Origin: Gloeophyllum trabeum ATCC 11539
Lineage: Eukaryota > Basidiomycota > Agaricomycetes > Gloeophyllales > Gloeophyllaceae
Reading direction: 5' to 3'
DNA: 34,712 nucleotides
NCBI RefSeq assembly: GCF_000344685.1
Contig: NW_006920421.1
Coordinates: forward strand, 734,613-769,324
Shown: one piece after another, positions 6,272-32,487 of the stretch
How positions within the stretch are numbered: position 1 is the stretch's first letter
Layout of the letters: each line of letters opens with the position of its first letter
Notes under the pieces: model-generated
Database searches by the model: none
What the model was told of the DNA's origin: nothing
What the model saw: only the letters and a program-made list of their open reading frames with translations
Made by a program: the position numbers and the translations under genes

Positions 6272-7539
6272 TGGGGCGGCCCCGGTGCCTCGGAGGTGCA
6301 GATACACGAATGAAATTTGGGATCAGCGATGCTTAATGTGTATCCATATGAACGTTGATAGATTGGCAGAATGAACTGTATTCTTTAATTACATCTTCCC
6401 GTTTGACTTTTGAGGCTAAGATACATCGTTATGGGCCACGCACCAGCGATGTGTCTTTCCACTGCATTACCTGAATTCATCCGTTCGCTCTTTGCATGAC
6501 GGAGGAGATAGATGAGATGGAGAGTTGGAGTAGTCTCGGAATCCGAGGAGGCAGCAGCTTCTGTGCCAAGTCGTACGGCCATTGGGATGAACTAAGGATA
6601 TCTCACCTGACTAGGCCTTTGACTGAGATCCTCGCACCGGTAGTTCGGATCGATTGCCTTTAAAGAGAGCAAAGGCTATTCGAGGTAAGTAGCTAAATCA
6701 GGAGAGCAGATCGCTGAGATGAAAGGATCCCTAAAACTGAGCACATGCGCTAAGTCATACAGATGGACGTAGTCCTGAGACGAATGCTGAATTCAGGGGG
6801 CAAGGAGGGCCCAGCTAGAGCGATGACTCGGCTGACATCGGAGGAAGACTGTCCGCTCATCCCCACGTAAACTGGACCAGAGTGAGCCCTGAGCTTAGGA
6901 AGATCCCCGCAAAAGCTTGTTTTAGGACGATCAACCTTCGAGCTGGTTGATTGTACCAATTGCAGAGTCGCTCTTGACGAGCAGATGCGCCCTCCGGGCG
7001 CTGGCGGCGATATCTCGGGTGCCAGGTTATATAATCACCGATAATTGCGACTAAAATTCTACGAAAGGCCGATAGGGTGCACTGTTGCAGTTCCAATGGA
7101 TGACCTTGATAAGATGCACGTCCATGCGAAGTCTCGAAGGATCCCGAAGGTGGCCGGGGTGAGGCCGAGATGAACTAGCCTCGTCAGCCCACACAAGCCT
7201 CATCGTTGCAAGAAACCAGAACATAGAGTAGTATTTGCGTGAGTCGCCCACCCAGGAACATGCAACGATTCGAATAGTACAGAGTTAGAGGAAAGAAATC
7301 CTGAATTATTTACTTCAATTTCTCCGGACCCGGGCCGGCGGCGAGGGCTGAAGGAAGATCAAGCAAGATCGGTCGGCCAAATCCGGACGACTCAAGTATG
7401 ACGTCCTGCGAGACGAAATCTGCAAAAGACCCTCCAAAACCAAGTCCCTCCGCATCGTCTTATATCTCTCCCTTAACTATTCCTAAATTATTGTTATCTC
7501 CCCCTACCACCGCCTCCATCGTCTCCAACAGCGACCACG
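6272..7539. other. Intergenic, includes the TPS1 promoter
   Basis: About 1.27 kb with no supported gene. Minus-strand ORFs of 60-80 codons lack ATG support or motifs. The last 150 bases before 7540 are pyrimidine-rich (CTCC, CCTCCAAAACC, TCTCCCCCT), which is usual for a fungal 5' leader. A CCCCT stress-element core sits at 7501-7505, probably in the leader. Confidence 0.4.
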
Positions 7540-9479
7540 ATGCCCGGTCCCAACGGCGACGCACCACAGTCCCCTGTCAATGGCTTCGACGGGGGCGACA
7601 AGACCCGCCTCATCGTCGTCGCCAATCGTCTGCCCATCACCATCTCGAAAGATGACAAGGGCGAGTACAGCTTCAAGATGTCCTCCGGCGGTCTCGTCTC
7701 TGCCCTCGCCGGCTTCAAAAAGTCCATGACATTCACCTGGATCGGCTGGCCAGGATTCTACATCCCCCCTAAAGACCGCCCCATCGTCGACAAGCGGCTG
7801 CACGAGGAGTTCTCATGCCAGGCCGTCTACCTTGAAGACGAGCTCGCCGACCGACACTACAACGGCTTCGCCAACTCCATCCTCTGGCCGCTACTGCACT
7901 ACCACCCCGGTGAGATGAACTTTGACGAGGAGAACTGGCTCGCATACCGCCAAGCGAACATGCGCTTCGCAGAGGCGGTGCGGCAGGTCCTGACCCCCGG
8001 ATCGATGGTCTGGGTACAGGATTACCACCTTATGCTGCTGCCAATGATGCTCCGAACACTCGTCGACGGCAAGGAGAAGGCGGGCGAGACGACCAGGACA
8101 GAGCTGCCGAAGATCATTGAGGGGATCGAGGCTGAGGACGGAGGGCTCCCGGAGTCGCAGTCTTTCGAAGGAATCAAGATCGGTTTCTTCTTGCATACGC
8201 CGTTCCCCAGTAGTGAGATTTACAGGTGGGTAATGTCACATGACATCCATCCAGCAGATATTTATGGTTCTGCAGAATATTGCCTGTGCGGAGAGAGATT
8301 CTACTGGGTCTGCTCTACTGTGATCTCATTGGGTTCCACACATACGACTATGCGCGGCATTTCCTCTCATCATGCACGCGTATCCTCGGTTTACCGACCA
8401 TGCCCAACGGCGTCGAGTTCGAGGGTCGACTCGCTCACGTCGGCATGTTCCCGATCGGTATCGAGCCAGATTCCTTCATCCAGGTTTGTGCAATCCCTTC
8501 TATCCTTCTCGTTCATTATCTCACTCTATTCTGCAGAACTTGAAGAAAGACTCCGTCAAGCAACGGATTGCTCAACTCGAGCAACGATTTGGGGATGTGA
8601 AGGTTATCGTCGGTGTCGACCGTCTAGATTACATCAAGGGTGTACCTCAAAAACTGCACGCGATGGAGCTTTTCTTGACGCAACATCCAGAGTGGGTCGG
8701 CAAGGTTTGTCGCCGAATCGAATCGCGCAATGTCAGCGGCTGATCCGAGGTTCCATTAGGTCGTCCTAGCGCAACTGGCAGTGCCTTCGCGACAAGATGT
8801 CGAGGAGTACCAGAACCTGCGGGCGACCGTGAACGAGCTCGTGGGGAGGATAAACGGCCGGTTCGGCACCGTGGAGTTCATGCCGATACATTTTATGCAC
8901 AAGAGCTTGCCGTTTGACGAGCTCTGCGCGCTGTACGCCGTGAGTGATGTCTGCCTCGTCACTAGTACCCGCGACGGTATGAACTTGGTACGTACGACCG
9001 TCATCGGTCTTGGAAATATAGTCTGACGTGCGATAGGTGTCCTACGAGTACATCGCGTGCCAGCAGGAGCGGCAGGGCGTGATGATCTTGTCTGAATTCG
9101 CGGGTGCGGCGCAGAGCTTGAACGGGAGTATCGTGGTCAACCCGTGGGACAGCCAGCAAGTCGCGGATGCGATCCACGAGGCGGTCACCATGGACGCGGA
9201 GACGAGGGCGGAGAACCACAGGAAGTTGTTCAAGGTTGGTCCTGCTAGTATTGTGCTTCGATGACATGGCAATCTCATTGGGACATTTAGTATGTGAAGA
9301 AGTACTCTGCATCGTATTGGGGGACGTCGTTCATCAAGGAGATGAGCAAGATCCGGTCGCCGGAGGAGGCTGCGCCGGAGAAGGTGCATGAGGAGCTGCA
9401 GCCTAATGATGACCCGAAGAGCGGGCTGCTTCACGGGACGAAACCGAGCGGGCCTGAGCAGGCTGCTAATGCTGCGTGA
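7540..9479 (+). CDS. TPS1: Alpha,alpha-trehalose-phosphate synthase (UDP-forming)
   Basis: Cytosolic GT20 glycosyltransferase that joins UDP-glucose and glucose-6-phosphate to trehalose-6-phosphate, the first step of trehalose synthesis. Six exons keep frame: 7540-8225, 8276-8483, 8537-8704, 8760-8987, 9037-9234 and 9291-9479. They give 558 residues, usual for fungal Tps1 without a phosphatase domain. Family landmarks in order are the N-terminal LIVVANRLPI, the SGGLVSAL glycine loop near residue 50, VWVQDYHLMLLP, GFFLHTPFPSSEIYR, LIGFHTYDYARHF, VGVDRLDYIKGVPQK with the substrate-contacting Arg and Lys, STRDGMNLVSYE and LSEFAGAAQSL. All are intact. The start follows a C-rich leader and precedes a short disordered N-terminus. 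The C-terminal 50 residues after KEMSKI are poorly conserved and charged. It looks functional. Confidence 0.97.
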
Positions 9480-10299: not shown

Positions 10300-11884
10300 T
10301 CATCGCCGCAGGTCGTCGTCGGGTCCGTCGTAATCCATGCCCCAATCCACGATGCCCAGGGCTCGCCTCATGGTTCTACGCATTTTCCAGTCGACTTTTC
10401 GGAGCTGCTGTTCGGTATTGGGGTTTTCATAGCCGCCCCTAGGACTGTCTTCTTGGGGAAGACAATATATCCAATACAGTTCTGGCTCTTGGCCTCCTGT
10501 CTCGTAGGAAATATATTCCAAGGAGGGAACAGTCGCTGCTAGATCAGGTAACCACTTTCCGCGTATCGAATCCATATCTGGACGACGATCACCGAGATCA
10601 CCAACGGTGTCGATGTGAACGTAAGTGACGTGAGCTTCATTTAGAGCATCACGAAGAAAAGGCTATGAGGACGATGCCAGTGGTCAGGCGGCGCGTGCGC
10701 TCGGGAAAATACTCAATACGCACCATGGCTTGTAAGGCTCGCGAGTACCGGCCACGCCTAGTAAGAGCGGATCCGAACTTCACCGCGAGATGTCGCAGGC
10801 TAGTCAGACTGCGGAACACGGTTTTGTCAAGGCACATCGCTCCAACTCGCTCTGCATCCATATTAAGAGAGAGGAATTTGGGATTGGCGGTCTGCAGGAG
10901 CTCAGCATATGCCCTCGGTACTTCGTTACCCAACTCGCTGAATGCTAAGACTCTGATATCCAACTGTATGAGGGGCTGCGTGACCACTCCGGCATTCCAA
11001 ATGTGCTCTAGATCTCCTCCGACCACTTCCATGGACTTGAAAGGAGGGTTGGTGGTAGCGGGTACCGTAATCGACAGTGGATATGCGTCATGGAAAAGGT
11101 GCTTTTGGAGGTCTACCTCGACTCGTATGTGCCTCACATTCGGAAAAGCATGAAGAAGCTCCGACCGATCGAACGTGGAGGTGGACAAAGAGAGCTCATA
11201 GACACGCGGCCATTGTCGATTCCGCACGATCGGGAACCTAAAGGATTGGTTATGGGTCCTGGGGTGAACTATAAGGGTGAGTACATCTAGGCTATCTCGG
11301 AGAGGCTCCAGAATTGCTCCGTAGTCGACAGTACCAGGAACCGTTCGTAAATACAATCGGCGAAGGCGACCGCGAAACTGGTCGAATAGATTTACATCAA
11401 TCACATTGTGCAAGTGATCAACGAGTTTCAGCTCCGAGATGTTGTTGCAGTGAGCGGCCAGGCCAACGAAGGAACTCGGGATAGGAATGGTGCAGATAGG
11501 AAAGACCGCGGATCCCATCCTAACACTCGCCGATGCCAGATTTGTGGCATGGGGCAAAATCTGTAAGAGCCTGTCGAAGGCTTTGCCCACTGGCATTGTC
11601 AGGAAGGCCATTGGCGAGTCTTCATTATCCGATGGCATGAATTCGTCGTCAGCTAGGCTGATCTGGAGGGAGTGCACGAGAGACATTCGTTCCGGGACCC
11701 TCTCGATGGAAGTGCAGAAGGATTTTATGTGCCGTCCGAAGCGCAGATAAACATGGCGATATACATTGTAGATTGCAATATCATGCAATGATCGGCAGAC
11801 CAACGCCAGATGAGAGGCATCTGACGAATGCAGGAAGTCGAGAATTAGCTGGAGTGTGTCGTGGTCGAGCTCTGAGAGTATCAT
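10300..11884 (-). CDS. F-box protein with a one-base frameshift
   Basis: Probable SCF ubiquitin-ligase substrate adaptor. The F-box is at the N-terminus: LDHDTLQLILDFLHSSDAS followed by HLALVCRSLHDIAIYNVYRHVYL, typical of agaricomycete F-box proteins, then an LRR-like stretch of repeated leucine-rich segments. The start at 11884 (MILSELDHD) is preferred. The frame is open up to 11968, but the piece before it contains a possible leader intron. The reading frame stops at 10649 just after a TTTT run (10657-10660 on the plus strand). Dropping one T continues smoothly (FLRDALNEAHVTYVHIDTVG) into the frame ending at 10300, giving about 527 residues. So the gene is either a recent pseudogene or carries a homopolymer sequencing error. 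No intron signals explain the break. It is convergent with TPS1 and divergent from RFC5. Confidence 0.8.
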
Positions 11885-12244
11885 TCTTATGCTGCAAATG
11901 TAAATTAGCCCGGCCTGGTTCAGATATACGTGCTCCGGCAGGAGCATCAGATGAAGACCCTCACTCAAGCAAGGTGGCTGGATACCAATGAATCGTTCGA
12001 GTTGCGAATGCGACGCGCCGTGACTGTATTGCCTAGTACCAGTGGCAGCGAAGTGTTGTCAGAAAAGTACCCGACACACTTCGCGTTATGGCAAAGATCG
12101 CTATATATACACGGGTGGTGGCACGCGCCGGAAACACGCGCCGACTCATAAAAACGCGTGACGTCACGCAGTTGCGGACGCGTCGCTCAGCTTCCACCGG
12201 CGCGTCCTACCAGTTCATCGCTCACATATACCCTGCACACCGAC
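11885..12244. other. Divergent promoter region F-box / RFC5
   Basis: 360 bp between two divergent starts. It holds the MCB/CRE cluster listed separately. A possible 39-bp leader intron of the F-box gene (GTATAT..GCAG on the minus strand) lies at about 11892-11930. No ORF of note. Confidence 0.5.
12154..12183. promoter_or_regulatory. MCB/CRE cluster in the RFC5 promoter
   Basis: ACGCGTGACGTCACGC at 12154-12169 followed by a second ACGCGT at 12178-12183, about 60-90 bp before the RFC5 ATG. CACGCGCC and ACACGCGCC lie just upstream. ACGCGT is the MBF-bound G1/S box of many replication genes in yeasts, which fits the downstream clamp-loader gene. TGACGTCA is an ATF/CREB-type site. Confidence 0.6.
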
Positions 12245-21723: not shown

Positions 21724-22053
21724 CTATGTAGTCGTTAAATCATCAAATACAGCTCTCTCTTCCAGATAGACTCGCTCATATTCCGAAACATCGGCCTCCA
21801 ATCCATAACTCCCGGCCACTTGCTGACACACCTTTGCCCTCGCCATCCCTACCAGACACGCAATCAGTCTTCTTGCACCATCCTGATCAGTACCGAGCTC
21901 CATCTGGCTTGGATGATCCCTGTTCGTGTTGACGATGACTCCCTCGACGACGTCAATCATGGCACCTCCTGGCATAGGCCGCCGATACACGTGCACCAGC
22001 TGGAAGAACGGTCCTCGCAATACCACCTCTTCCTCCGGGTACGCCGAAAATTC
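21724..22053 (-). CDS. C-terminal exon with ADP-ribosyltransferase E-motif
   Basis: An exon of 110 codons opens after a clean TATTTATCCAG acceptor and ends in a stop at 21724. Its first residues, EFSAYPEEEVVLRGPFFQL, match the third conserved element of R-S-E (arginine-type) ADP-ribosyltransferases, where the ExE glutamates are catalytic and are followed by a strand reading VLxxPFF. The rest (about 85 residues) is a helical tail with a Cys and several acidic residues. It therefore looks like the last exon of the ART gene whose R and S motifs lie further right. About 0.9 kb separates them, far longer than the 50-60 bp introns here. I found no phase-compatible single intron that links the two parts. 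An insertion or a truncated second gene is possible. Confidence 0.65.
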   Translation of the reverse strand, partial: EFSAYPEEEVVLRGPFFQLVHVYRRPMPGGAMIDVVEGVIVNTNRDHPSQMELGTDQDGARRLIACLVGMARAKVCQQVAGSYGLEADVSEYERVYLEERAVFDDLTTT

Positions 22054-22067
22054 CTGGATAAATAGGG

Positions 22068-22107
22068 CGGTAGGGCCGTGCGAGCACGGCAGAGCCCGCT
22101 ACCGTAG
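22068..22107. repeat. GC-rich imperfect hairpin
   Basis: GCCGTGC and GCACGGC pair directly around GA. Outside them CGGTAG and CTACCG pair with a bulge. The right half (GCCCGCTACCGTAG, 22094-22107) recurs inverted at 22592-22605. Confidence 0.5.
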
Positions 22108-22605
22108 ATATAGATTGATATTTGGTAGCAAGCTGAACACTTCACATCCTGAGCAGCGTCATATATATATATTTTGCGAAAGCAGCTGTGTTCCAGCAAT
22201 TATTTCTGACTGAGCATTCAACTCAATGGCCTGGAGTCCTGAGAGATGTCCACTCATCCCTCCCTCAGGTTTCGAGAATACAAGTTACATATGCAAAACA
22301 ACTGACAGCGGGGTATTCTGATTTCACCTTGAGACCGCAAGGTCCAAGGCCCCAAGCAAGGTCAGTTCTTGACAGTCATCCGCCACCTTGGCTATAAAGG
22401 GGAAGAGAAATGACACGTGGCGTGACTATCGGGGTCCTTTAAGGACCCCACCTTTGATTGGTCCAAAGCCCTGTCCCGCTCTTGCCGTTCACCATATACG
22501 GTTAAGCGCCAAATAGTGTCAAATAAATCGCGTAGATCTTGAAACGATCGCAGGAAACCTGCGAACGGCCGGGGGGTCCAAGACCCACTACCTACGGTAG
22601 CGGGC
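22094..22605. mobile_element. Possible insertion bounded by 14-bp inverted repeats
   Basis: GCCCGCTACCGTAG at 22094-22107 is repeated as its exact reverse complement at 22592-22605. The 512-bp interval lies between the ART catalytic body and its E-motif exon, where an intron of about 55 bp would be expected. Inside are a 9-bp-arm hairpin (22431-22449), an AT repeat (TCATATATATATATT, about 22160) and GGCTATAAAGG (about 22390). It has no ORF with a recognisable product. No clear target-site duplication was seen, so a mobile origin is only suggested. Confidence 0.35.
22431..22449. repeat. Perfect 9-bp-arm palindrome
   Basis: GGGGTCCTT and AAGGACCCC around a single T. It lies inside the interval described at 22094-22605. 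Confidence 0.55.
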
Positions 22606-22905
22606 ATCGGTATCGTAGCGGCGCAAGCGCCAATCCCCGACTCCAGTCAGAAACCATCAAGTATTCCAGGTACTTGTGTCTGGTCAAGTTGCGGAATGCC
22701 AGTCTTGACGCGTACGGACACATACATCGATATAGTCCTGTCTTATATCTACATCAATATTTAAAGGGGTTTCCTCCCAGTCCCCGCTCAGAGATACTAG
22801 TCTCATTTGTCAGCCTCACTTGTGTCAATGCATCCTTTCATCGAATGCTACGCACTGCATCACTTTGACCTTTCATGTCAGGTGTGTGTGGGCAGTTGTC
22901 TTCAA

Positions 22906-23863
22906 GTCAAAACGAAAGTGGCGTCGGTCCGGTCGGGACGTTGCTTACATGAGGTTCTCACGGCGAGAGCGAGTTGTATGGTGGAGCGACCATTTCTTCC
23001 CGACAGAACCCTCCTCCCAACTACCGTGGGAGTCGGGGACTGCACACATTGTTGTCACGACGCTCATAGGGTAGTATTGATGATAAACACGGAGGAGCTC
23101 TGGGTCTAGGTTAGCGACGTGGATGCGCCACAGGACGGGGTGCATATGCTCCGTCCCATGAGCGGTCGCCTGCTGGAGGGCGAACTTTACCGCGATGTCT
23201 TCATCCATACTGCAGGATACGATTGCTAGGGGAATAGACCAGAATCTCTCCCTGATGGGCATGCGGGCCAGCTGGTAGAATGCGTCGAGCTGCACTGTGG
23301 AAAGGCACAGACCTCGATGGACAGTCCCGGTAAACCCGACATCCCTCATCCCCTGCTCGGTGATGTATTTGAAGAGTTCTATATTCAAGAGCTCCACGAA
23401 AAAGACGGCAGACACCAGCCGCTCATTATCGATGTCGTGAGTGCGGAAGACTTCGTTGATGATCTTGAAGGCATGTAAATATCCCACTGGAGTGGTGTAT
23501 AACCGCAGGAGACCATAATCCTCAGGGGGGTCGCCGCCCCGTCGTCTGTCAGACCACTGCTTGAACCGGGGCAGAGTGTCCAAGATAGGAGAGACGGTTT
23601 CATGTTCACCGAGCTGCAAGAGCAAGTCGCGCAAGCGGGACAGAAAATCGGCATAAAGATGCCAATTTCCCCGAACGTGATGGATAGCTTCGCGAATGTG
23701 GCTCATGCGCATATCAACCTCTTTCCCGTTATAGAACGACCGCAAGGATCCACCGCCATTTCCGACAGTGAAGAAGCTCGACGTTGAGTCGGTGTCGCCG
23801 AAGCGAGCCAAGCGCGTCTGCAACAGGAGTGGTGATCGAGTGTTCAATTGCAGAGTGGGGATG
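22906..23863. repeat. Left copy of a 958-bp repeat, abuts the N gap
   Basis: Appears identical to 24118-25075 over its full length. Its right end is exactly the first N. See the finding on unmerged contig ends. Confidence 0.95.
22945..23863 (-). pseudogene. ART body, left copy, cut by the assembly gap
   Basis: Partial copy of the ADP-ribosyltransferase gene body. It encodes the same residues as the right copy, including VHRGLCLS (R motif) and SCSMDEDIAVKFAL (S motif), and is truncated upstream where the N gap begins. It ends in the same stop/donor region (the frame stops at 22945, with a GTAAGC donor alongside). Because it matches the right copy base for base, it is probably not a separate gene but the same locus assembled twice. 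Confidence 0.8.
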
Positions 23864-24117
23864 NNNNNNNNNNNNNNNNNNNNNNNNNNNNNNNNNNNNN
23901 NNNNNNNNNNNNNNNNNNNNNNNNNNNNNNNNNNNNNNNNNNNNNNNNNNNNNNNNNNNNNNNNNNNNNNNNNNNNNNNNNNNNNNNNNNNNNNNNNNNN
24001 NNNNNNNNNNNNNNNNNNNNNNNNNNNNNNNNNNNNNNNNNNNNNNNNNNNNNNNNNNNNNNNNNNNNNNNNNNNNNNNNNNNNNNNNNNNNNNNNNNNN
24101 NNNNNNNNNNNNNNNNN
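23864..24117. other. Assembly gap, 254 N
   Basis: A run of N between the two copies of the 958-bp repeat. Any ORF spanning it is artificial. Confidence 1.
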
Positions 24118-25075
24118 GTCAAAACGAAAGTGGCGTCGGTCCGGTCGGGACGTTGCTTACATGAGGTTCTCACGGCGAGAGCGAGTTGTATGGTGGAGCG
24201 ACCATTTCTTCCCGACAGAACCCTCCTCCCAACTACCGTGGGAGTCGGGGACTGCACACATTGTTGTCACGACGCTCATAGGGTAGTATTGATGATAAAC
24301 ACGGAGGAGCTCTGGGTCTAGGTTAGCGACGTGGATGCGCCACAGGACGGGGTGCATATGCTCCGTCCCATGAGCGGTCGCCTGCTGGAGGGCGAACTTT
24401 ACCGCGATGTCTTCATCCATACTGCAGGATACGATTGCTAGGGGAATAGACCAGAATCTCTCCCTGATGGGCATGCGGGCCAGCTGGTAGAATGCGTCGA
24501 GCTGCACTGTGGAAAGGCACAGACCTCGATGGACAGTCCCGGTAAACCCGACATCCCTCATCCCCTGCTCGGTGATGTATTTGAAGAGTTCTATATTCAA
24601 GAGCTCCACGAAAAAGACGGCAGACACCAGCCGCTCATTATCGATGTCGTGAGTGCGGAAGACTTCGTTGATGATCTTGAAGGCATGTAAATATCCCACT
24701 GGAGTGGTGTATAACCGCAGGAGACCATAATCCTCAGGGGGGTCGCCGCCCCGTCGTCTGTCAGACCACTGCTTGAACCGGGGCAGAGTGTCCAAGATAG
24801 GAGAGACGGTTTCATGTTCACCGAGCTGCAAGAGCAAGTCGCGCAAGCGGGACAGAAAATCGGCATAAAGATGCCAATTTCCCCGAACGTGATGGATAGC
24901 TTCGCGAATGTGGCTCATGCGCATATCAACCTCTTTCCCGTTATAGAACGACCGCAAGGATCCACCGCCATTTCCGACAGTGAAGAAGCTCGACGTTGAG
25001 TCGGTGTCGCCGAAGCGAGCCAAGCGCGTCTGCAACAGGAGTGGTGATCGAGTGTTCAATTGCAGAGTGGGGATG
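24118..25075. repeat. Right copy of the 958-bp repeat
   Basis: Starts at the first base after the N run and matches 22906-23863 at an offset of 1212. Beyond 25075 the ART gene continues into unique sequence. Confidence 0.95.
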
Positions 25076-26378
25076 GACATGGGTGTCGCATTGTATGCTT
25101 GCCACACTCTTTCGTCGCTTCCTGGGGCAAGTAGTCCGGAGATGAAGGCCCGGCAGATGGATTGTTCCGTCGTCGATCCCGTGTTTGCGTAACTGAGCAC
25201 GTACCCCGTGCCTTGGATACTGGATCCGCAGTAGACGAGGATGGGTGCCTGATACTGACGGCCACGCATGTAGCGGACGATGTTCTCTCCGGCCGAGAAG
25301 GTGAAGATACCATTAGCCCCGCCACTTTCCGGTTTCGAATTATCGATAATGATACGCAGACTGGATGACCTATCCAAATCCTGCATCTCTGGAGACGTGC
25401 CACAGTCAGAACTGGTACCACACGGCATCTAATACTATACTTACCTGGGTGTTGCTCAAGCCAGTCCTTGAGGACGGCGGTCGAAGTAAATCGCTGGACT
25501 TGGATATGGTGCTGGAGAGCGAACATTACTTCCTCTATTTTGTTCTCTGGTTTATCATCGACCCAGAGCAAGCATTTATATACGTGATTACTAGAAGCAG
25601 GTGGTGCTGCAGTATCGATTATGTCGCAATCCGGTCCGAACGCAATGTCTCATACCTTCACCACTGCGGATACGCTGTACGGCATCTGTCAAGAAACTTT
25701 GACCGCCAAATCTTTCCAAGGTTGCTGGTGTTACCACATTGATCCGGAATTCGTCGAGGCGTAGCCAGAGGGTATGGAAGTCTTCTTCCGAGAGATTGAA
25801 CAGCGAATCCAGAGCCAGCCTGAACCGTGCTCGTGCAGCATATGCATCCTTCAGTACGTGCCCACTTTAGAGATATGGACGAGTTCACAGTAGAAACGTA
25901 CCTCATTGCCAAAAACATCAGACCAGGATTGCCGTACATTTGGATTACCGACGGAACCCAAGATGCCGATATCAGCCTGAGGTGGAGGGGCGTCAGTGTG
26001 TTCAGCCTGACACGCAGTCTTCAATAATAGAGCGCGCTGCAGTAATAGGTCACTATCACGCTTCAACTTGCTTATAACCCGTGACGGGAAGAAGAACGCG
26101 TGAATTGTCGCAACGGACACCTGCCCTCCTTTGAGCGCCGTGAGGCCTTGGTGTATGGAGCATAAATTGTCCCCAATATCAAGCAGGCATAGAACAAGGC
26201 CTGGGGGGAGACTCCTTCGTGTAGCGAGAGGATGGATGATCTCTTGAATGAATCGAACATTGTCGTGAACTGCATCAACGGTGACATCAGCCTGCTGAGA
26301 GCCGTCGAGGCAGGTGAATATGGAGGTCGCGGCAGAACACACAGAGGACAGGATGGCGAAGGGGTGCATGGTCTCCAT
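24157..26378 (-). CDS. Helical domain + receiver-like domain + ADP-ribosyltransferase
   Basis: Putative NAD-dependent ADP-ribosyltransferase with signalling domains. Minus-strand exons are 26378-25902, 25848-25656, 25606-25445 and 25388 to about 24157. Exon 1 (159 residues) is all helical, starting METMHPFAILSSVCSAATSI, and resembles N-terminal bundles of fungal STAND/HeLo-like proteins. Exons 3-4 hold a receiver-like fold: LLWVDDKPENK (acidic pair after strand 1), LRIIIDN (Asp at the end of strand 3) and APILVYCGSS (strand 4). The C-terminal half carries the ART R motif (TVHRGLCLS) and S motif (SCSMDEDIAVKF), then a VLWRIHV strand. The E motif is not in this piece but in the exon at 21724-22053. 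The frame stops at 24157, beside a GTAAGC donor, so the true 3' end runs into the gap or the left contig. Fold assignments are by eye. The substrate is unknown. Confidence 0.7.
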
Positions 26379-27621: not shown

Positions 27622-28116
27622 TTGACTTGGCCTGGTCCTCGAACCAGACAGACGTCTCTAACTTTCATTTCAGTTGGACTTCTGTCATAGTTTATAGTTC
27701 ACGGCGCAGAGCGTCCCTCGTGCTGCTGCTGGGTACGATATGGATCCAAGTTGTTCTCCTCAGAGCCTCGCGCAGACAAGCTGCAATTGCAGATCTACAA
27801 CCTCGAGATGTCACGCGTCAGCTGAACAGAGGGCTCAGATCATGATTGGCTCCTGGCGACGTCGTCCGACAGCTTGTTGTTGAACTTAGCATTGCCCAGC
27901 TGTAGGCCGCCGAGGCAGAAACCTCACGCACACTCCGCACCCCCGCATTGCAAGGGTCGCTGCCGCGCTGCCCGTCGTCGGGCCTACGAAAGACCGTCCC
28001 CAAGCCTCCCCCGGCGACGACCCCCACCTGACCCCGTCTACCCCAGGCTGCACCGCCACCGCCGGACTCAAAAGGCGGCCGCGCATTCCCACCCCAGGTC
28101 TGGCTGAAATAATCAC
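27622..28116. other. bHLH gene 5' region
   Basis: 495 bp upstream of the bHLH ATG. GC content rises sharply after about 27900. No supported gene. Confidence 0.4.
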
Positions 28117-29392
28117 ATGAAGGCCCGCGCTGGCATCACCCCGCACTGCAGCTTGGCCATGCCCGCGGCGTCCGACCCCCAGCTGCTCTCCGCGGGCGAG
28201 GCGCACGCGTTCCAGAGCTTCCTCGCCGCCGTCGACGACGGGCTCGCGCCCGAATGGCACATGTACGCGAGCGGCGGTGCGCATGGGGGGGGAGGGGGCG
28301 CGGCGATGGCGGGCATCGAGGTGCCCGCGGGGAGGGAGGCGCTGGCGAAGGCGACGAAGGACCTGATGGCGCTCGACCACCGCGCGCCGCCGCCGCCACA
28401 ACAACAACAACAACAACAACACCAACAACCGCAGCAGCCGAGCAGGCATGCGACGACGGACGCGCCGAGCTACGCGCACGAGCCGCACTACTCGTTCGGG
28501 TACGTGCACTCCCGTCCGCCCGCCCGCGCGCACTCGTCGTCGGCCGCGCCGCCGCACACGCTGCACCCCCTCCCCGCGCCCGCGCCCTCCGCCCTGCCCG
28601 CATCCGCATCCGCATCCCGCCCGCCCGCCCCGCGCCGCCCGCCCAAACGGCCTAGCACCTCCTCCAGCACCTCCTCCAGCACCACCACCACCACCACCAC
28701 GACCACATCCACGAACGCGAAACGCCGGCGCGCCTCGCCCTCGCCGAAGCCCGCGCTGCTCACGCCGTCGCAGAAGAAGGCGAACCACATCCAGAGCGAG
28801 CAGAAGCGGCGCGCGAACATCCGGCGCGGGTACGAGGCGCTGTGCGACGCCGTGCCCGCGCTGCGCGCGGCCATCGCGCGGGAGGAGGCGGAGGAGAGGA
28901 GGGAGAAGGGCAAGGCGCGGAGGAGGGGCAAGGGGAGGGAGGGGAGGGAGGCGGAGGCGGAGGCGGCGGAGAGGGCAGACGGGCGGGCGGGCCCGCGGAG
29001 CGAGAATATCGTGCTGCAGAAGAGTGAGTGCCGGTTCCCATCTTGTGCTCGTATACGCGCCCCTTTCTCCCCATCCGCTCCGTGGTTTTCTGCTTCCCTA
29101 CCACCCCGCCCATCGTAATCATCCGACCCCCGCCCCCCCCCCTTCCCGTTACCCGCCCACCCTCCTCGTCACTGCGGCCGCCTGCTAACCCCACTCCACC
29201 CCAGCAATCGACTACATCACTGCCCTCCTGGACGAACGCTCCGCGCTGCTCACGCGGCTGCAGCACGCGCGCGCACGGCTCCCGCCCTCGCACCCGGCGC
29301 TGCACCCGCCGTCCGCGCCGCCTCCACTGTGGGAGCGCGAGTGGACCGGGGGGACGGGGGACGGTGAGGAGGAGGCGGGGGCGGGGGAGTGA
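28117..29392 (+). CDS. bHLH transcription factor with long charged loop
   Basis: Nuclear DNA-binding regulator. Two exons, 28117-29023 and 29205-29392, give 364 residues. The basic region and helix 1 start near residue 220: KKANHIQSEQKRRANIRRGY then EALCDAVPALRAAI. The NHIxSEQKRR pattern (His and Glu contacting CANNTG, Arg at the second arginine position) suggests E-box binding. Helix 2 (SENIVLQKTIDYITALLDER) is split by the intron. Between the helices sits an unusually long loop of about 38 residues made of Glu, Arg, Lys and Gly. The N-terminal 200 residues are low-complexity: poly-Gln from CAA repeats (28399-28428), Pro-, Ser- and Thr-rich tracts. A later start at 28159 (MPAASDPQ) is possible. 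Very GC-rich sequence creates many false antisense ORFs here. It is convergent with the zinc-finger gene. Confidence 0.9.
28399..28437 (+). repeat. CAA/CAG triplet repeat (poly-Gln)
   Basis: Seven CAA codons, one CAC, two CAA, one CCG, then two CAG, inside the bHLH coding frame. Likely variable in length between strains. Confidence 0.85.
28681..28700 (+). repeat. ACC triplet repeat (poly-Thr)
   Basis: Six to seven ACC units in the bHLH coding frame, encoding a Thr run before the bHLH domain. Confidence 0.85.
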
Positions 29393-29764
29393 TCAAGGAA
29401 AGGAAAAGGAAGGGAGAAGGGACAGGGAAGAAAGAAAGGCAGTCCAAGTTATTGTACTATTATACCCGGTGCGCGAGATGTCGGACGGGACGCAGATTCA
29501 GCAGAGGCGGGAGGAGGTGTTCTGTTGCTACATTAGGTTATCTTATCACTGTGCTACTGACCGCCGTCCATCGCTAATCACGAATCTTCAAGTTCCCGGC
29601 GGTTGTGCAGATGCCCTGCATACACCTACCCGCCCGGTCCCTGATGCCAGTACAATACATACACCATAACGGTATTACATTACTTCTAACCTACGACCCC
29701 TATCCGGATCTACTTTCCCGCCCATCCATTCTGCGCATCCGGTCCCCTTACCCTCGAGTCTGAA
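29393..29764. other. Convergent 3' flanks of bHLH and zinc-finger genes
   Basis: 372 bp between two stops. Purine-rich just after the bHLH stop. It should hold both polyadenylation regions. No gene seen. Confidence 0.45.
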
Positions 29765-30885
29765 TCACGCCACCCCGACCCCGCCGGCCCCCTCAAACAC
29801 ACACGTCCCCTTCTCCAGGTGGTACTTCAACCCGTTCGGGTTGAGGTAGCTCTTCACGCACCCGGGCTGCGGGCAGCGGAAGCCGCGCTCCCTCTTCGCG
29901 CGCTCGCGTCGGCGCTCGAGCTTTGCGCCGCTGGATTTCTTGGGTTTCTGTGCGGCGGTGGTGGTGGTGGGGTGGGGGAGAGGCGAGGTGGAGGGGGCGT
30001 GCGGGACCGTGAACGCTCCGGGGGGCAGGCCGACTTCGTCCGCCGATGATCGTCGGGCTTGGGCCTGGGCTTGGGAGGGCGCAAAGGACACGTCGGGGCC
30101 CACCCGGCTAGGACCGTCGCCGGGCTCTGCCGCGGAGGCGTCCCACCACTCGCCGTCCTGGTACGGGGGGAGATACGGGTATGGCGGCGGGCGGTCGTAC
30201 TGGTGCTGGAGGATCGCGCACGGGTCGGGGTCGTACGCGAACCCGCAGTCGGCGGGGGGCGGCGGGGATAGCGACGACGGGCGCGGGCAGCTGTGGCTGA
30301 CTACCAGCCCGGGGCGAGGTTTTGACGCTTCCCGCTCCGACGGGTAGTCGGGCTCGGGGCTGGGGTTGGGGTAGGAGAGGACGCGCGGGTAGGGGTGGTA
30401 CCGCTGGGCGACGAGGACGTGGGACTCCTCGAAGTGGTCGACGAGCTCGTGCAGGTCCGAGAGCGAGAGCCCGCAGCACGTAAAGTTCGTGCACTGTCGC
30501 CGGGGTCAGCACTGCAGGAGGAGACGCGGTGGGACGCGGGACTCACGAACTCGCGCTCGAAGGAGGGGATGCGGTCGAGCGGGGCGGGCGTGCCGGGGGC
30601 GGAGGAGACGGGGGAGAGCGTGGAGAGGGACGAGGACGGCGGGATGGGGTGCAGCGACGACGTGAGCGGGCGCGCGACGGGCGGCAAGTCGAGCGGGTCG
30701 GACCACGCGGGCTCGTGGTAGGCAGCGGAGGCGGTGCTCATCGTGCGCGGCAGGGCAGCGGCGGGGGTGGGATGGGACGCCGCGGGACCGCTACTAGTAC
30801 CATCGCCGCCGGGGTGCGCATCGCGCTGCTGCGGATCAGGACGAGAAGACGACGGCGGTCGGGTCGACGCGTCCGACACTGTCAT
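29765..30885 (-). CDS. SFP1-like C2H2/C2HC zinc-finger factor
   Basis: Putative transcription factor. Two minus-strand exons, 30885-30547 and 30493-29765, give 355 residues. Exon 1 is Ser/Pro-rich and ends at RIPSFEREF. Exon 2 starts at once with a Cys/His-rich element, CTNFTCCGLSLSDLHELVDH followed by FEESH, the atypical first finger found in fungal SFP1-like proteins. A Pro-rich middle follows. Near the end (residues 320-344) lies CPQPGCVKSYLNPNGLKYH with a final GTC, a finger whose last ligand is Cys (C2HC). A basic stretch (KLERRRERAKRERG) precedes it and may be the nuclear signal. In yeast Sfp1 controls ribosomal-protein genes. The same role here is only a guess. The ATG at 30885 is chosen as the nearest in-frame start. 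The frame stays open upstream to 31218. Confidence 0.85.
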
Positions 30886-31084
30886 GCTAACGTCGGAGAG
30901 GATTGTGTGTCTGCTCGCGTGCGGCCGGCTGCTGGGTATTATAACCCAAGCACGGGCGGACGTCATCTGTCCGTGCGTGGAGGCAGGCGCGCCAACGCTC
31001 GACGCAGAGCCGAGCACCGTCCAGTCCTCCCCGAGCCCCGCCCGAGCCCCCTGGCCTCGGCGCATCGGGGCCTTCCAGCGCAGC

Positions 31085-31962
31085 TCATCGCCTGTCCATC
31101 GGCGCTCCCGGGCTTGACACCCAACGCTCCTCCGTCCGTGTCCGGAAGGCGCTGCTCCGGATCGGGTCGCTGGCGTGTCCTCCGTGTCCTCGAGAGTCGA
31201 TCCCGCTGTCTCCACCAATCAGGGTCGTCGCTCTCCGCCCTGCGCATACCGTAACGCGGTTGGAGTCGCCCACCTGCCCTGGGGCCTCGCTGGTGTACTC
31301 GTCATACTCGCTTCCCCTACTCCAACTTCCAGTCAACCGCTCGCGTCCAATCCCAGTCGAGCGATGCCCGCGCTATGGCAACCAGCGCTGCTCGGGAGAA
31401 GAGCAGGCACTCCATATTCAGGCACACGCCTGCCGCGTTGGCTAACCGGGAACAGAGCGCCTTGACAGGTGAGTTCATTATGGGTGGCGCGAGGCTCCAG
31501 GTCGTCGCTTGCCGAGGGTATACCCGAGAGAGGGAGCGCGAGCACTGGCCTCGGTATCGAGCGTACTTGCAGTGCTCGCGTCGGTGGCTGTCGAGGGCGG
31601 AGACGTACCCATCCTTTCGTTCCGGCGATTGCTCACGACAGCATCTGCATCCCGCCAGAAGACCCGTCTTGCGTACTCCATCCAACCCAGGGAATCGCAA
31701 ACCACCATCGAAGCCCGCGTCATCCGCATCCATAGCCAGACTTCCCATAGAATTTCCGCCTTCCGTCGTGTTTCATCCCGGCCAGGGTCGTCCTGACATG
31801 ATCACCACCAGCAGAAGAAGATCAGAAAGACCAAGTCGGGGTGGAGCTGCTCGCCGCTGGCTAAACACGCACTGGCAGGTGGTGGTGGGGGGAGCAGGGA
31901 TGTCATGCGTTCCCACGATACTCGTGGCGTTCATAGCCAATCAGAGGATGGGGGCGCTTTGA
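31085..31962. other. Ambiguous region, overlapping open frames on both strands
   Basis: On the minus strand, 31729-31478 (Ser/Thr-rich: SPPSTATDASTASTLDTEAS) and the frame after an acceptor at 31372, ending at 31085 (GSEYDEYTSEAPGQVGDSN), both look like exons of one low-complexity protein. I could not join them with a short intron. On the plus strand an ATG ORF runs 31375-31962 (195 codons) without recognisable motif. At most one strand is real. The minus strand reads more like protein. Confidence 0.2.
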
Positions 31963-32487
31963 TAGGCTCGCGCGCACTCGACGATCGCACGAGGGTTTGG
32001 CTCCTATGGATTCGTCTTTCTCTCAAGTCAACAGCGAGCACTGGAGCGACGATGACCACGATGGCTCTAATCAAGATGTCAAATAATAATTGCATACAGC
32101 GATCCCAATCAATGTACAGCGTCTCCTATCGACGGCACCGGGTGCGACCCCGGTGGACAACCTTCGACCCCAGTTCGCACAGCTGTCTAGCACAAAGCGA
32201 CGTTATCCACCTTGCCACACGGGCACGTGGAACAACTGCAGCATCTGGAATTAGCCATGCCGCAAGCACCACAACTCGCAAGTGTACTCGTTGTGTGCTG
32301 AATGTAGAAGAAGGCCTCGCGGCTTCCTACATAGTGGGCCGGATATGTATAATATCACGAGTTAGCGGAGTGTCGCTCACGTCGCGATATTGCTTCGTGC
32401 TCAGCACCGCAGTGCCCTTGGAACAGCGAGCGTCACTGGCGTTGCCAGAGACAATTCACTCCCGTGCAGACGCCGCGCGGGAGCGTC
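31963..32487. other. Intergenic, nothing seen
   Basis: About 525 bp. Part of a 219-codon plus-strand open frame with no motif crosses it. I see no supported gene. The 3' end of the helical-bundle gene may extend into its right edge. Confidence 0.3.

What the first reader, a model, noticed from the sequence alone, without database searches (positions are those of the whole stretch)
21724..26378. Receiver-like domain fused to an R-S-E ADP-ribosyltransferase with a helical N-terminus
Seen: an all-helical exon 1, a segment with LLWVDDKPENK, LRIIIDN and APILVYCGSS spaced like the acidic pair, phospho-acceptor strand and strand 4 of a CheY-like receiver, then ART R and S motifs (VHRGLCLS, SCSMDEDIAVKF). 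Nearby is an exon with the E motif (FSAYPEEEVVLRG). Known: R-S-E ARTs modify protein arginines or other targets using NAD, receiver domains are usually phosphorylation switches, and fungal HeLo-like bundles serve in death signalling. Inference: a one-protein sensor-effector in which the receiver-like part gates an ART, possibly for non-self recognition or stress. It may be a pseudo-receiver, since the usual strand-4 Thr/Ser and strand-5 Lys are not obvious.
Basis: partly seen in the sequence, partly recalled or inferred. Interest (0 to 1): 0.8.

Follow-up and report, generated by a model that had tools for sequence, protein, structure and literature searches.

The report
Mushroom enzyme with built-in bacterial-type switch
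A wood-rotting fungus carries a gene whose protein joins a bacterial-style switch domain to an enzyme of the kind that tags proteins with a piece of NAD; relatives of the two parts sit side by side as separate genes in some bacteria, which suggests that they work together, although the copy in this window appears to be cut by two small transposable elements.

The parts
25902..26378 (-). exon 1: helical N-terminal domain (about P0001 residues 1-130) and the start of the EF-hand-like part; deposited start codon at 26369
   Evidence: dN/dS 0.36 against the paralogue
25656..25848 (-). exon 2: rest of the Cbl-type EF-hand-like pair (P0001 residues about 135-221 together with the end of exon 1)
25445..25606 (-). 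exon 3: first half of the receiver-like domain (LLWVDDKPENK, acidic pair)
24253..25388 (-). exon 4 up to the MITE: second half of the receiver (LRIIIDN, APILVYCG; to about 25120), helical linker, ART R motif (Arg codon 24526-24528) and S-x-S (24421-24429)
   Evidence: dN/dS 0.16 against the paralogue
23864..24117 (.). assembly gap (254 N) between overlapping, unmerged contig ends
   Evidence: 958-base identical blocks on both sides
22906..23863 (-). second copy, 100% identical, of 24118-25075 (same gene segment from the neighbouring contig)
22610..23040 (-). MITE-like element A, inserted directly after the codons for ...VVTTMCA; also read into the tail of P0001
   Evidence: 17 other matches at 88-97% identity in the own genome, ends compared with 2 copies, inverted repeat 22631-22644 / 23029-23042
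22062..22607 (-). MITE-like element B, abutting A; inverted repeat 22094-22110 / 22589-22605
   Evidence: 31 other matches, some fragments, in the own genome, ends compared with 7 copies, repeat
21724..22061 (-). 3' part of exon 4 cut off by the MITEs: ART E motif FSAYPEEEVVLRG (E-x-E codons 22033-22035 and 22027-22029) and C-terminus
   Evidence: 84% identical to the paralogue, where it is contiguous with R and S

Best explanation
It is a gene for an intracellular signalling enzyme in which a receiver-like domain controls an R-S-ExE ADP-ribosyltransferase, with an N-terminal helical plus Cbl-type EF-hand-like module as the probable docking or sensing part. Supported here by computation: the domain order, the predicted folds, the conserved ART triad, purifying selection, and that the receiver and the ART belong to the same two families that lie side by side in actinobacteria. 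Inferred: the ART is held inactive or mislocalised until an input reaches the receiver or the N-terminal module; it then uses NAD to modify arginine (E-x-E type) on a cell protein, most likely in a stress, non-self or cell-death response. Since no conserved Lys is seen (and fungi have Cys for Thr/Ser), the input is more likely Mg/nucleotide binding or a partner protein than a classical histidine-kinase phosphate. The copy in the window is probably no longer functional, because two MITEs separate S from E; the paralogue about 22 kb away has an uninterrupted frame.
For: Folds. Triad in 85 of 90 (97 minus five without ART and two without the E part). Receiver and ART in one chain in 6 of the 97 collected proteins (P0001, P0002, P0006, P0008, P0011, P0048; of these P0008 and P0048 start inside the receiver). 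Bacterial neighbours: a receiver gene with a hydrophobic N-terminal stretch next to the ART in 3 of 3 actinobacterial loci (L033, L034, L039), and one strong receiver copy in each of those genomes (304, 383, 361 bits, next best 29.7). Fungal and bacterial receivers related: hhalign Prob 97.7, E 1.5e-12, against 2.2 or less in 20 column-shuffled controls and 0.04 and 0.2 in two unrelated comparisons. Selection: dN/dS 0.16 (R-S exon), 0.23 (E part). Paralogue.
Against: No enzyme activity or regulation was tested. No Pfam domain reaches its cut-off in the fungal proteins scanned. 86 of the 97 collected proteins show an ART without a receiver in the deposited length (two of them, P0003 and P0005, are partial models of receiver-bearing genes), so the ART can probably act without it. 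The spirochaete ART locus (L035) shows no such receiver, and one strong bacterial receiver (L053, 203 bits) has no ART within 1.5 kb. The ART part of P0001 itself, which lacks the E motif, is not among the PDB rows shown for its model. The N-terminal model is poor (pLDDT about 34-66), and the stretch after receiver strand 4 has pLDDT under 50. Export was not tested.
Confidence: 0.55

Rival explanations
1. The receiver-like domain is itself an enzyme or a binder of NAD-derived or cyclic nucleotides, like the cRec domains proposed in phage and bacterial conflict systems, and limits or clears the ART's signal rather than gating it by phosphorylation.
For: The three Asp are invariant while no Lys (and, in fungi, no Thr/Ser) is conserved; it is linked to an ART by fusion and by adjacency; no histidine kinase among the neighbour frames scanned; cRec precedent in PMC7824862 section 3.4.8 (passages read).
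Against: The bacterial members match ordinary Response_reg (28-29 bits, cut-off 30.2), and no cRec family is listed in the Pfam scans. No ligand data.
Confidence: 0.2
2. Ordinary two-component output: a histidine kinase and an HPt protein phosphorylate the receiver Asp and switch the ART on.
For: Receiver fold and intact Asp triad; fungi have hybrid histidine kinases (general knowledge); the bacterial members keep Thr at strand 4 in 3 of 3.
Against: No conserved Lys in the 9 fungal and amoebozoan rows; DLP, QTP and ETP where Lys-Pro is expected in the 3 bacterial rows; Cys in place of Thr/Ser in 9 of 9. No kinase among the neighbour frames scanned; a 13-bit HisKA hit inside the Actinokineospora ART I take as chance.
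Confidence: 0.12
3. The protein is a defensive toxin against predators or competitors, released on wounding, and the other domains are for delivery.
For: The ART part resembles bacterial ART toxins in fold, and mushrooms defend themselves with protein toxins (PMC13324453, start of abstract and passages).
Against: No lectin or delivery family was listed; the EF-hand/receiver front end and the bacterial receiver partner point to intracellular signalling. Export was not tested.
Confidence: 0.08
4. Only a decayed gene cluster: degenerating copies without present function.
For: The window copy is cut by two MITEs, and a second paralogue stops before the ART (P0097).
Against: The paralogue L032:4986-7443 is open with R, S and E; dN/dS is 0.16-0.36; relatives with receiver and ART in Neolentinus, Obba, Gelatoporia and Grifola.
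Confidence: 0.1

Closest known systems
R-S-E arginine ADP-ribosyltransferases (ART2.2, HopU1, Vis)
   Different: No sequence match above a curated cut-off; own conserved helical front part beginning near RF.DW; fused to a receiver instead of a secretion or delivery part.
Response regulator receiver domains (PF00072), e.g. PorX, a receiver with an enzymatic output (output recalled)
   Different: No conserved Lys, Cys for Thr/Ser in fungi, invariant DN after strand 3, an ART as output; no kinase among scanned neighbours.
cRec domains (cyclic-phosphate processing Rec; PMC7824862, passages read)
   Same: Divergent receiver linked to NAD/ADP-ribose enzymes outside histidine-kinase systems.
   Different: No cRec family listed in the Pfam scans; bacterial members resemble ordinary Response_reg; the partner here is an ART.
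Cbl N-terminal module (4H + EF-hand + SH2)
   Different: A receiver follows instead of SH2; no RING was listed; the 4H resemblance is unproven (joint alignments of 131-141 residues only at about 14 A).

Membership tests
R-S-E ADP-ribosyltransferase | Arg of the R motif | tested here: met
   R562 of P0001; R in 90 of the 90 rows with R-to-E complete
R-S-E ADP-ribosyltransferase | S-x-S/T motif | tested here: met
   SCS 595-597 in P0001; first Ser in 87 of the same 90 rows
R-S-E ADP-ribosyltransferase | E-x-E motif in the same chain | tested here: met
   Met in P0002 and in the paralogue and, together with R and S, in 85 of 90 rows; in the window copy it is separated by MITEs
R-S-E ADP-ribosyltransferase | ART fold | tested here: met
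R-S-E ADP-ribosyltransferase | Match above the Pfam cut-off (ART PF01129 or ADPrib_exo_Tox PF03496) | tested here: not met
   Best 12.0 bits (cut-off 22.3; P0006) and 12.8 bits (cut-off 23.4; L034 ART)
R-S-E ADP-ribosyltransferase | NAD-dependent ADP-ribosylation | not testable with these tools
   needs an assay
Canonical response-regulator receiver | (beta-alpha)5 fold | tested here: met
Canonical response-regulator receiver | Acidic pair and acceptor Asp | tested here: met
   9 of 9 fungal and amoebozoan rows; acidic pair and Asp in 3 of 3 bacterial rows
Canonical response-regulator receiver | Thr/Ser at strand 4 | tested here: not met
   Cys in 9 of 9 fungal and amoebozoan rows; Thr in 3 of 3 bacterial rows
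Canonical response-regulator receiver | Conserved Lys at strand 5 | tested here: not met
   No column with Lys in 5 or more of 9 rows in the last 40 columns of A8; VVDLP, VVQTP, VVETP in the 3 bacterial rows; alignment of this part is uncertain
Canonical response-regulator receiver | Partner histidine kinase | tested here: inconclusive
   None among the frames scanned near the pairs (1 other frame in L033, 8 in L034, 3 in L039); a distant kinase is possible
cRec | Linked to NAD/ADP-ribose enzymes | tested here: met
   Fusion to the ART in fungi, adjacency in 3 of 3 actinobacterial loci; the ART's activity itself is inferred
cRec | Sequence match to a cRec family | tested here: inconclusive
   No such family listed in the Pfam scans; weak matches can be lost by the filters
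Cbl-type N-terminus | EF-hand-like domain | tested here: met
Cbl-type N-terminus | Four-helix bundle | tested here: inconclusive
   Low-confidence model, about 14 A over the joint alignment
Cbl-type N-terminus | SH2 domain after the EF-hand | tested here: not met
   A receiver fold follows
HeLo / HeLo-like | Match to a HeLo-type family in the N-terminal helices | tested here: not met
   None listed up to E 10 for P0001 (only MukF_C, E 0.094, at 230-291) or for 4 N-terminal segments (only ATG5_UblB, E 0.13, in one); fold not resolved

The most novel reading that the evidence does not exclude
A previously undescribed NAD-based conflict or cell-death system shared by bacteria and mushrooms: in actinobacteria a membrane-anchored, Lys-less receiver and an R-S-ExE ART form a gene pair; in Agaricomycetes the pair is fused behind a Cbl-like EF-hand front end, and a slime mould keeps the same front end plus receiver, apparently without the ART. 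The receiver works without a histidine kinase, reading a nucleotide or ADP-ribose signal through its Asp triad, and releases the ART against the cell's own proteins.
Probability: 0.25. Interest if true: 0.8.

Novelty: new variant of a known kind. Interest (0 to 1): 0.6.

Why it matters
If true, it joins two signalling worlds that are usually kept apart (receiver switches and protein ADP-ribosylation) in one chain, and shows the same pairing as neighbouring bacterial genes and as a fungal fusion. That gives a handle on what controls an unannotated ART family that is frequent in mushrooms, and makes it testable whether receivers without the Lys act as kinase-independent sensors in NAD-using conflict systems. 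It also corrects deposited gene models: P0001 and P0003 describe one MITE-interrupted gene, and P0001 ends in MITE sequence.

Tried and rejected
HeLo identity of the N-terminus: no HeLo-type match. Gap hiding an exon: rejected, it is a contig overlap. E motif as an ordinary separate exon: rejected, the paralogue and P0002 have it contiguous with S; the deposited model P0003 removes both MITEs as an intron, which without transcripts I cannot confirm or exclude. Phage or plasmid origin: no match to P0076 in the plasmid and phage collections and none to A6 in viral contigs. Known defence system: of 9 proteins scanned the only PADLOC match is a marginal pAgo hit (E 0.046) for P0002. Sequence-only PDB searches: single protein P0002 gave nothing better than E 0.72; the receiver profile nothing better than E 0.43; the ART profile three helical-bundle chains, best WA20 at E 0.0045, outside the catalytic part; the N-terminal profile listed Cbl from E 0.085 (17 of 18 rows). 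The third protein search returned 4 proteins and did not find P0006 again although it is in the query, so its candidate cap hid relatives and it says little about how widespread the front end plus receiver is. Weak hits taken as chance: MukF_C, IL17R, uroporphyrinogen synthase, TbpB_C, Sif, UBA_7, PH_31, HisKA, ATG5_UblB. Foldseek on the P0001 model gave no match at E 0.001 or below; the viral library neither (best a receiver at E 0.041). Foldseek rows for P0002 below the ARTs include large multi-domain chains with poor superposition, not followed. Not in print: the ten searches listed no paper on a receiver-ART fusion that I could recognise from titles and abstracts; PMC7159879, PMC8195603, PMC7824862, PMC13324453 and PMC4986451 were seen in passages only, and the library lacks most subscription journals.
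Full report
What is there. The window's proteins are those deposited for Gloeophyllum trabeum ATCC 11539, an agaricomycete; it lies at C12:734613-769324 of its assembly. The gene is on the minus strand. Four exons (26378-25902, 25848-25656, 25606-25445, 25388 onward) join through introns of 53, 49 and 56 bases with GT..AG ends into one frame, the same protein as deposited GLOTRDRAFT_131861 except that the latter starts three residues later (P0001).

The gap and the E motif. The 254 N at 23864-24117 are flanked by two identical 958-base blocks: overlapping contig ends that were not merged. Between the S motif and the E-motif segment lie two abutting repeats, 23040-22610 and 22607-22062. A search of the own genome with this stretch gave 49 matches: the place itself, 17 to the first repeat and 31 to the second, some of them fragments; the ends were read from 9 copies outside the locus, 2 of the first and 7 of the second. 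The paralogue at C12:782485-784942 (L032:4986-7443) has R, S and E in one open frame of 518 codons, and the Neolentinus orthologue P0002 has them contiguous too. So the MITEs cut a coding exon. The deposited annotation splits the gene: P0001 runs into the MITE and P0003 removes both MITEs as an intron. A second paralogue (C12:779031-780454, P0097) stops before the ART. In this genome exon 1 matches these three copies only (3 rows), and the EF/receiver query likewise found only these three genes (5 rows), at E 0.1 or below.

Selection. Window copy against paralogue: exon 4 dS 0.44, dN 0.071, ratio 0.16; E part dS 0.16, dN 0.037, ratio 0.23; exon 1 dS 0.62, dN 0.22, ratio 0.36. The two copies thus seem to have diverged for a long time under constraint; the MITEs are 91-97% identical to the 9 copies compared, so the insertions look younger (inference).

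The ART family. A profile search gave 96 proteins at E 0.01 or below; with P0004, which one search had found, I hold 97. Six carry receiver motifs and ART (P0001, P0002, P0006 Obba, P0008 Gelatoporia, P0011 Grifola, P0048; P0008 and P0048 start inside the receiver). Four have the receiver but no ART (P0093-P0096; they end at about the same place after it, but three come from contigs of about 1 kb, so absence of the ART is likely rather than proven; P0094 is labelled Phypoly, which I take to be Physarum polycephalum). P0097 is the truncated paralogue. The remaining 86 show an ART without a receiver in the deposited length; two of them (P0003, P0005) are partial models of the G. trabeum genes. 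The length filter of that search and fragmentary metagenome proteins limit these counts. Leaving out P0093-P0097 and the two without the E part (P0001, P0048), 85 of 90 have R, S and E-x-E; the five others differ at one of the four places. In a FastTree of 93 ART parts (97 minus P0093-P0097, P0003 and P0020, plus three bacterial loci) the receiver-bearing genes fall in one clade of 22 tips (support 0.98) with 14 ARTs that show no receiver and one long branch (P0082), so the fusion is old within that clade or arose twice.

The bacterial link. One scan of GTDB genomes gave three loci from 53 candidate stretches: Actinokineospora (L033), Actinomadura (L034) and a spirochaete MAG (L035). Genome searches found the ART in 2 of 345 genomes (order of Actinomadura, adding G267/L039) and in 1 of 397, 1 of 392 and 1 of 394, the single hits being the starting genomes; only the best few candidates per genome were scored. 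In all three actinobacterial loci the adjacent gene codes for a hydrophobic N-terminal stretch, which I read by eye as a membrane helix, plus a receiver (VLWVDDxP...), scoring 28-29 bits against PF00072, just under its 30.2 cut-off (the L034 piece used there and in A9 lacks its last dozen residues). Orientation differs: convergent in L033, receiver upstream on the same strand in L034 and L039. Each of these genomes has one strong copy of that receiver (304, 383, 361 bits; next best 29.7), so adjacency by chance is very unlikely. Against: the spirochaete genome has no match to that receiver, and of the other 13 genomes in the order with a receiver match at E 1e-12 or below, none has an ART within 1.5 kb, including one at 203 bits (L053). 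So the ART predicts the receiver (3 of 3 in actinobacteria), but the receiver does not always predict the ART. Likely bacterial relatives on contigs that I could not read (such as P0072, P0078, P0080, P0088) were not checked. The fungal and amoebozoan receivers (9 sequences) and the three bacterial ones are related: hhalign Prob 97.7, E 1.5e-12. Controls: 20 column shuffles reach at most 2.2; N-terminus and ART profiles reach 0.04 and 0.2.

How it may work. All 9 fungal and amoebozoan receivers keep both acidic residues and the acceptor Asp, all have Cys at the Thr/Ser position, and none of the last 40 columns has Lys in five or more rows; the bacterial three have Thr but DLP, QTP, ETP where Lys-Pro is expected (the canonical residues are recalled, and the alignment there is uncertain). 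No histidine kinase was seen among the neighbour frames scanned. I therefore favour control of the ART by a receiver that binds a ligand or partner over phosphotransfer, at modest confidence. E-x-E suggests arginine as acceptor (general knowledge of the family). Precedents: receivers tied to NAD enzymes outside two-component systems, the cRec proposal (PMC7824862, passages read), and kinase-independent receivers proposed as nucleotide-responsive switches in conflict systems (PMC8195603, passages read). The main text of a survey of fungal NLR effectors (PMC4986451, passages) holds neither 'ADP-ribosyl' nor 'ART' as whole words.

Verdict. Real and informative, with the window copy itself probably broken; the open paralogue and the orthologues carry the interest. 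It is not filed as a canonical receiver (Lys and Thr/Ser tested and not met), as Cbl (SH2 not met) or as HeLo (no match). It behaves in fold and motif as an R-S-E ART, though below curated cut-offs.

Noticed in passing
window 24118-24252 and 22906-23040: The C-terminal tail of deposited P0001 is translated from a MITE; 25 of 29 own-genome matches lie only in this end of the query, so other gene models in this genome may carry the same artefact.
   Followed up: partly
window 22062-23040: Two MITE families inserted back to back; the deposited model P0003 uses GT at the very start of element A and an AG beyond element B as intron ends, so whether the fungus splices them out could be read from transcripts.
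   Followed up: partly
window 21724-22061 against L032:7111-7443: The E part is much closer to the paralogue (dS 0.16) than exon 4 is (dS 0.44), which may mean gene conversion of the 3' end.
   Followed up: no
L032:1532-2955 (C12:779031-780454): A third family copy, in opposite orientation to the open paralogue, ends just after the receiver and lacks the ART, like the receiver-only homologues P0093-P0096.
   Followed up: no
L035:7356-9041; P0089: The spirochaete ART and P0089 have their own N-terminal extension; P0089 begins with what reads by eye as a membrane helix, so membrane attachment may recur on the ART side.
   Followed up: no
window 28001-32000: G+C jumps to about 68% against about 49-55% elsewhere; one frame here (28108-29118 +) has a weak helix-loop-helix match (E 0.0014).
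   Followed up: no
window 7477-8769 (+) and 10649-12058 (-): A glycosyltransferase family 20 exon (PF00982, E 2.8e-54) and an F-box-like frame (E 4.5e-5).
   Followed up: no
L033:130-441: An integrase-core frame (rve_3, E 4.2e-15) lies about 1.1-1.3 kb upstream of the Actinokineospora ART, a hint of mobility.
   Followed up: no
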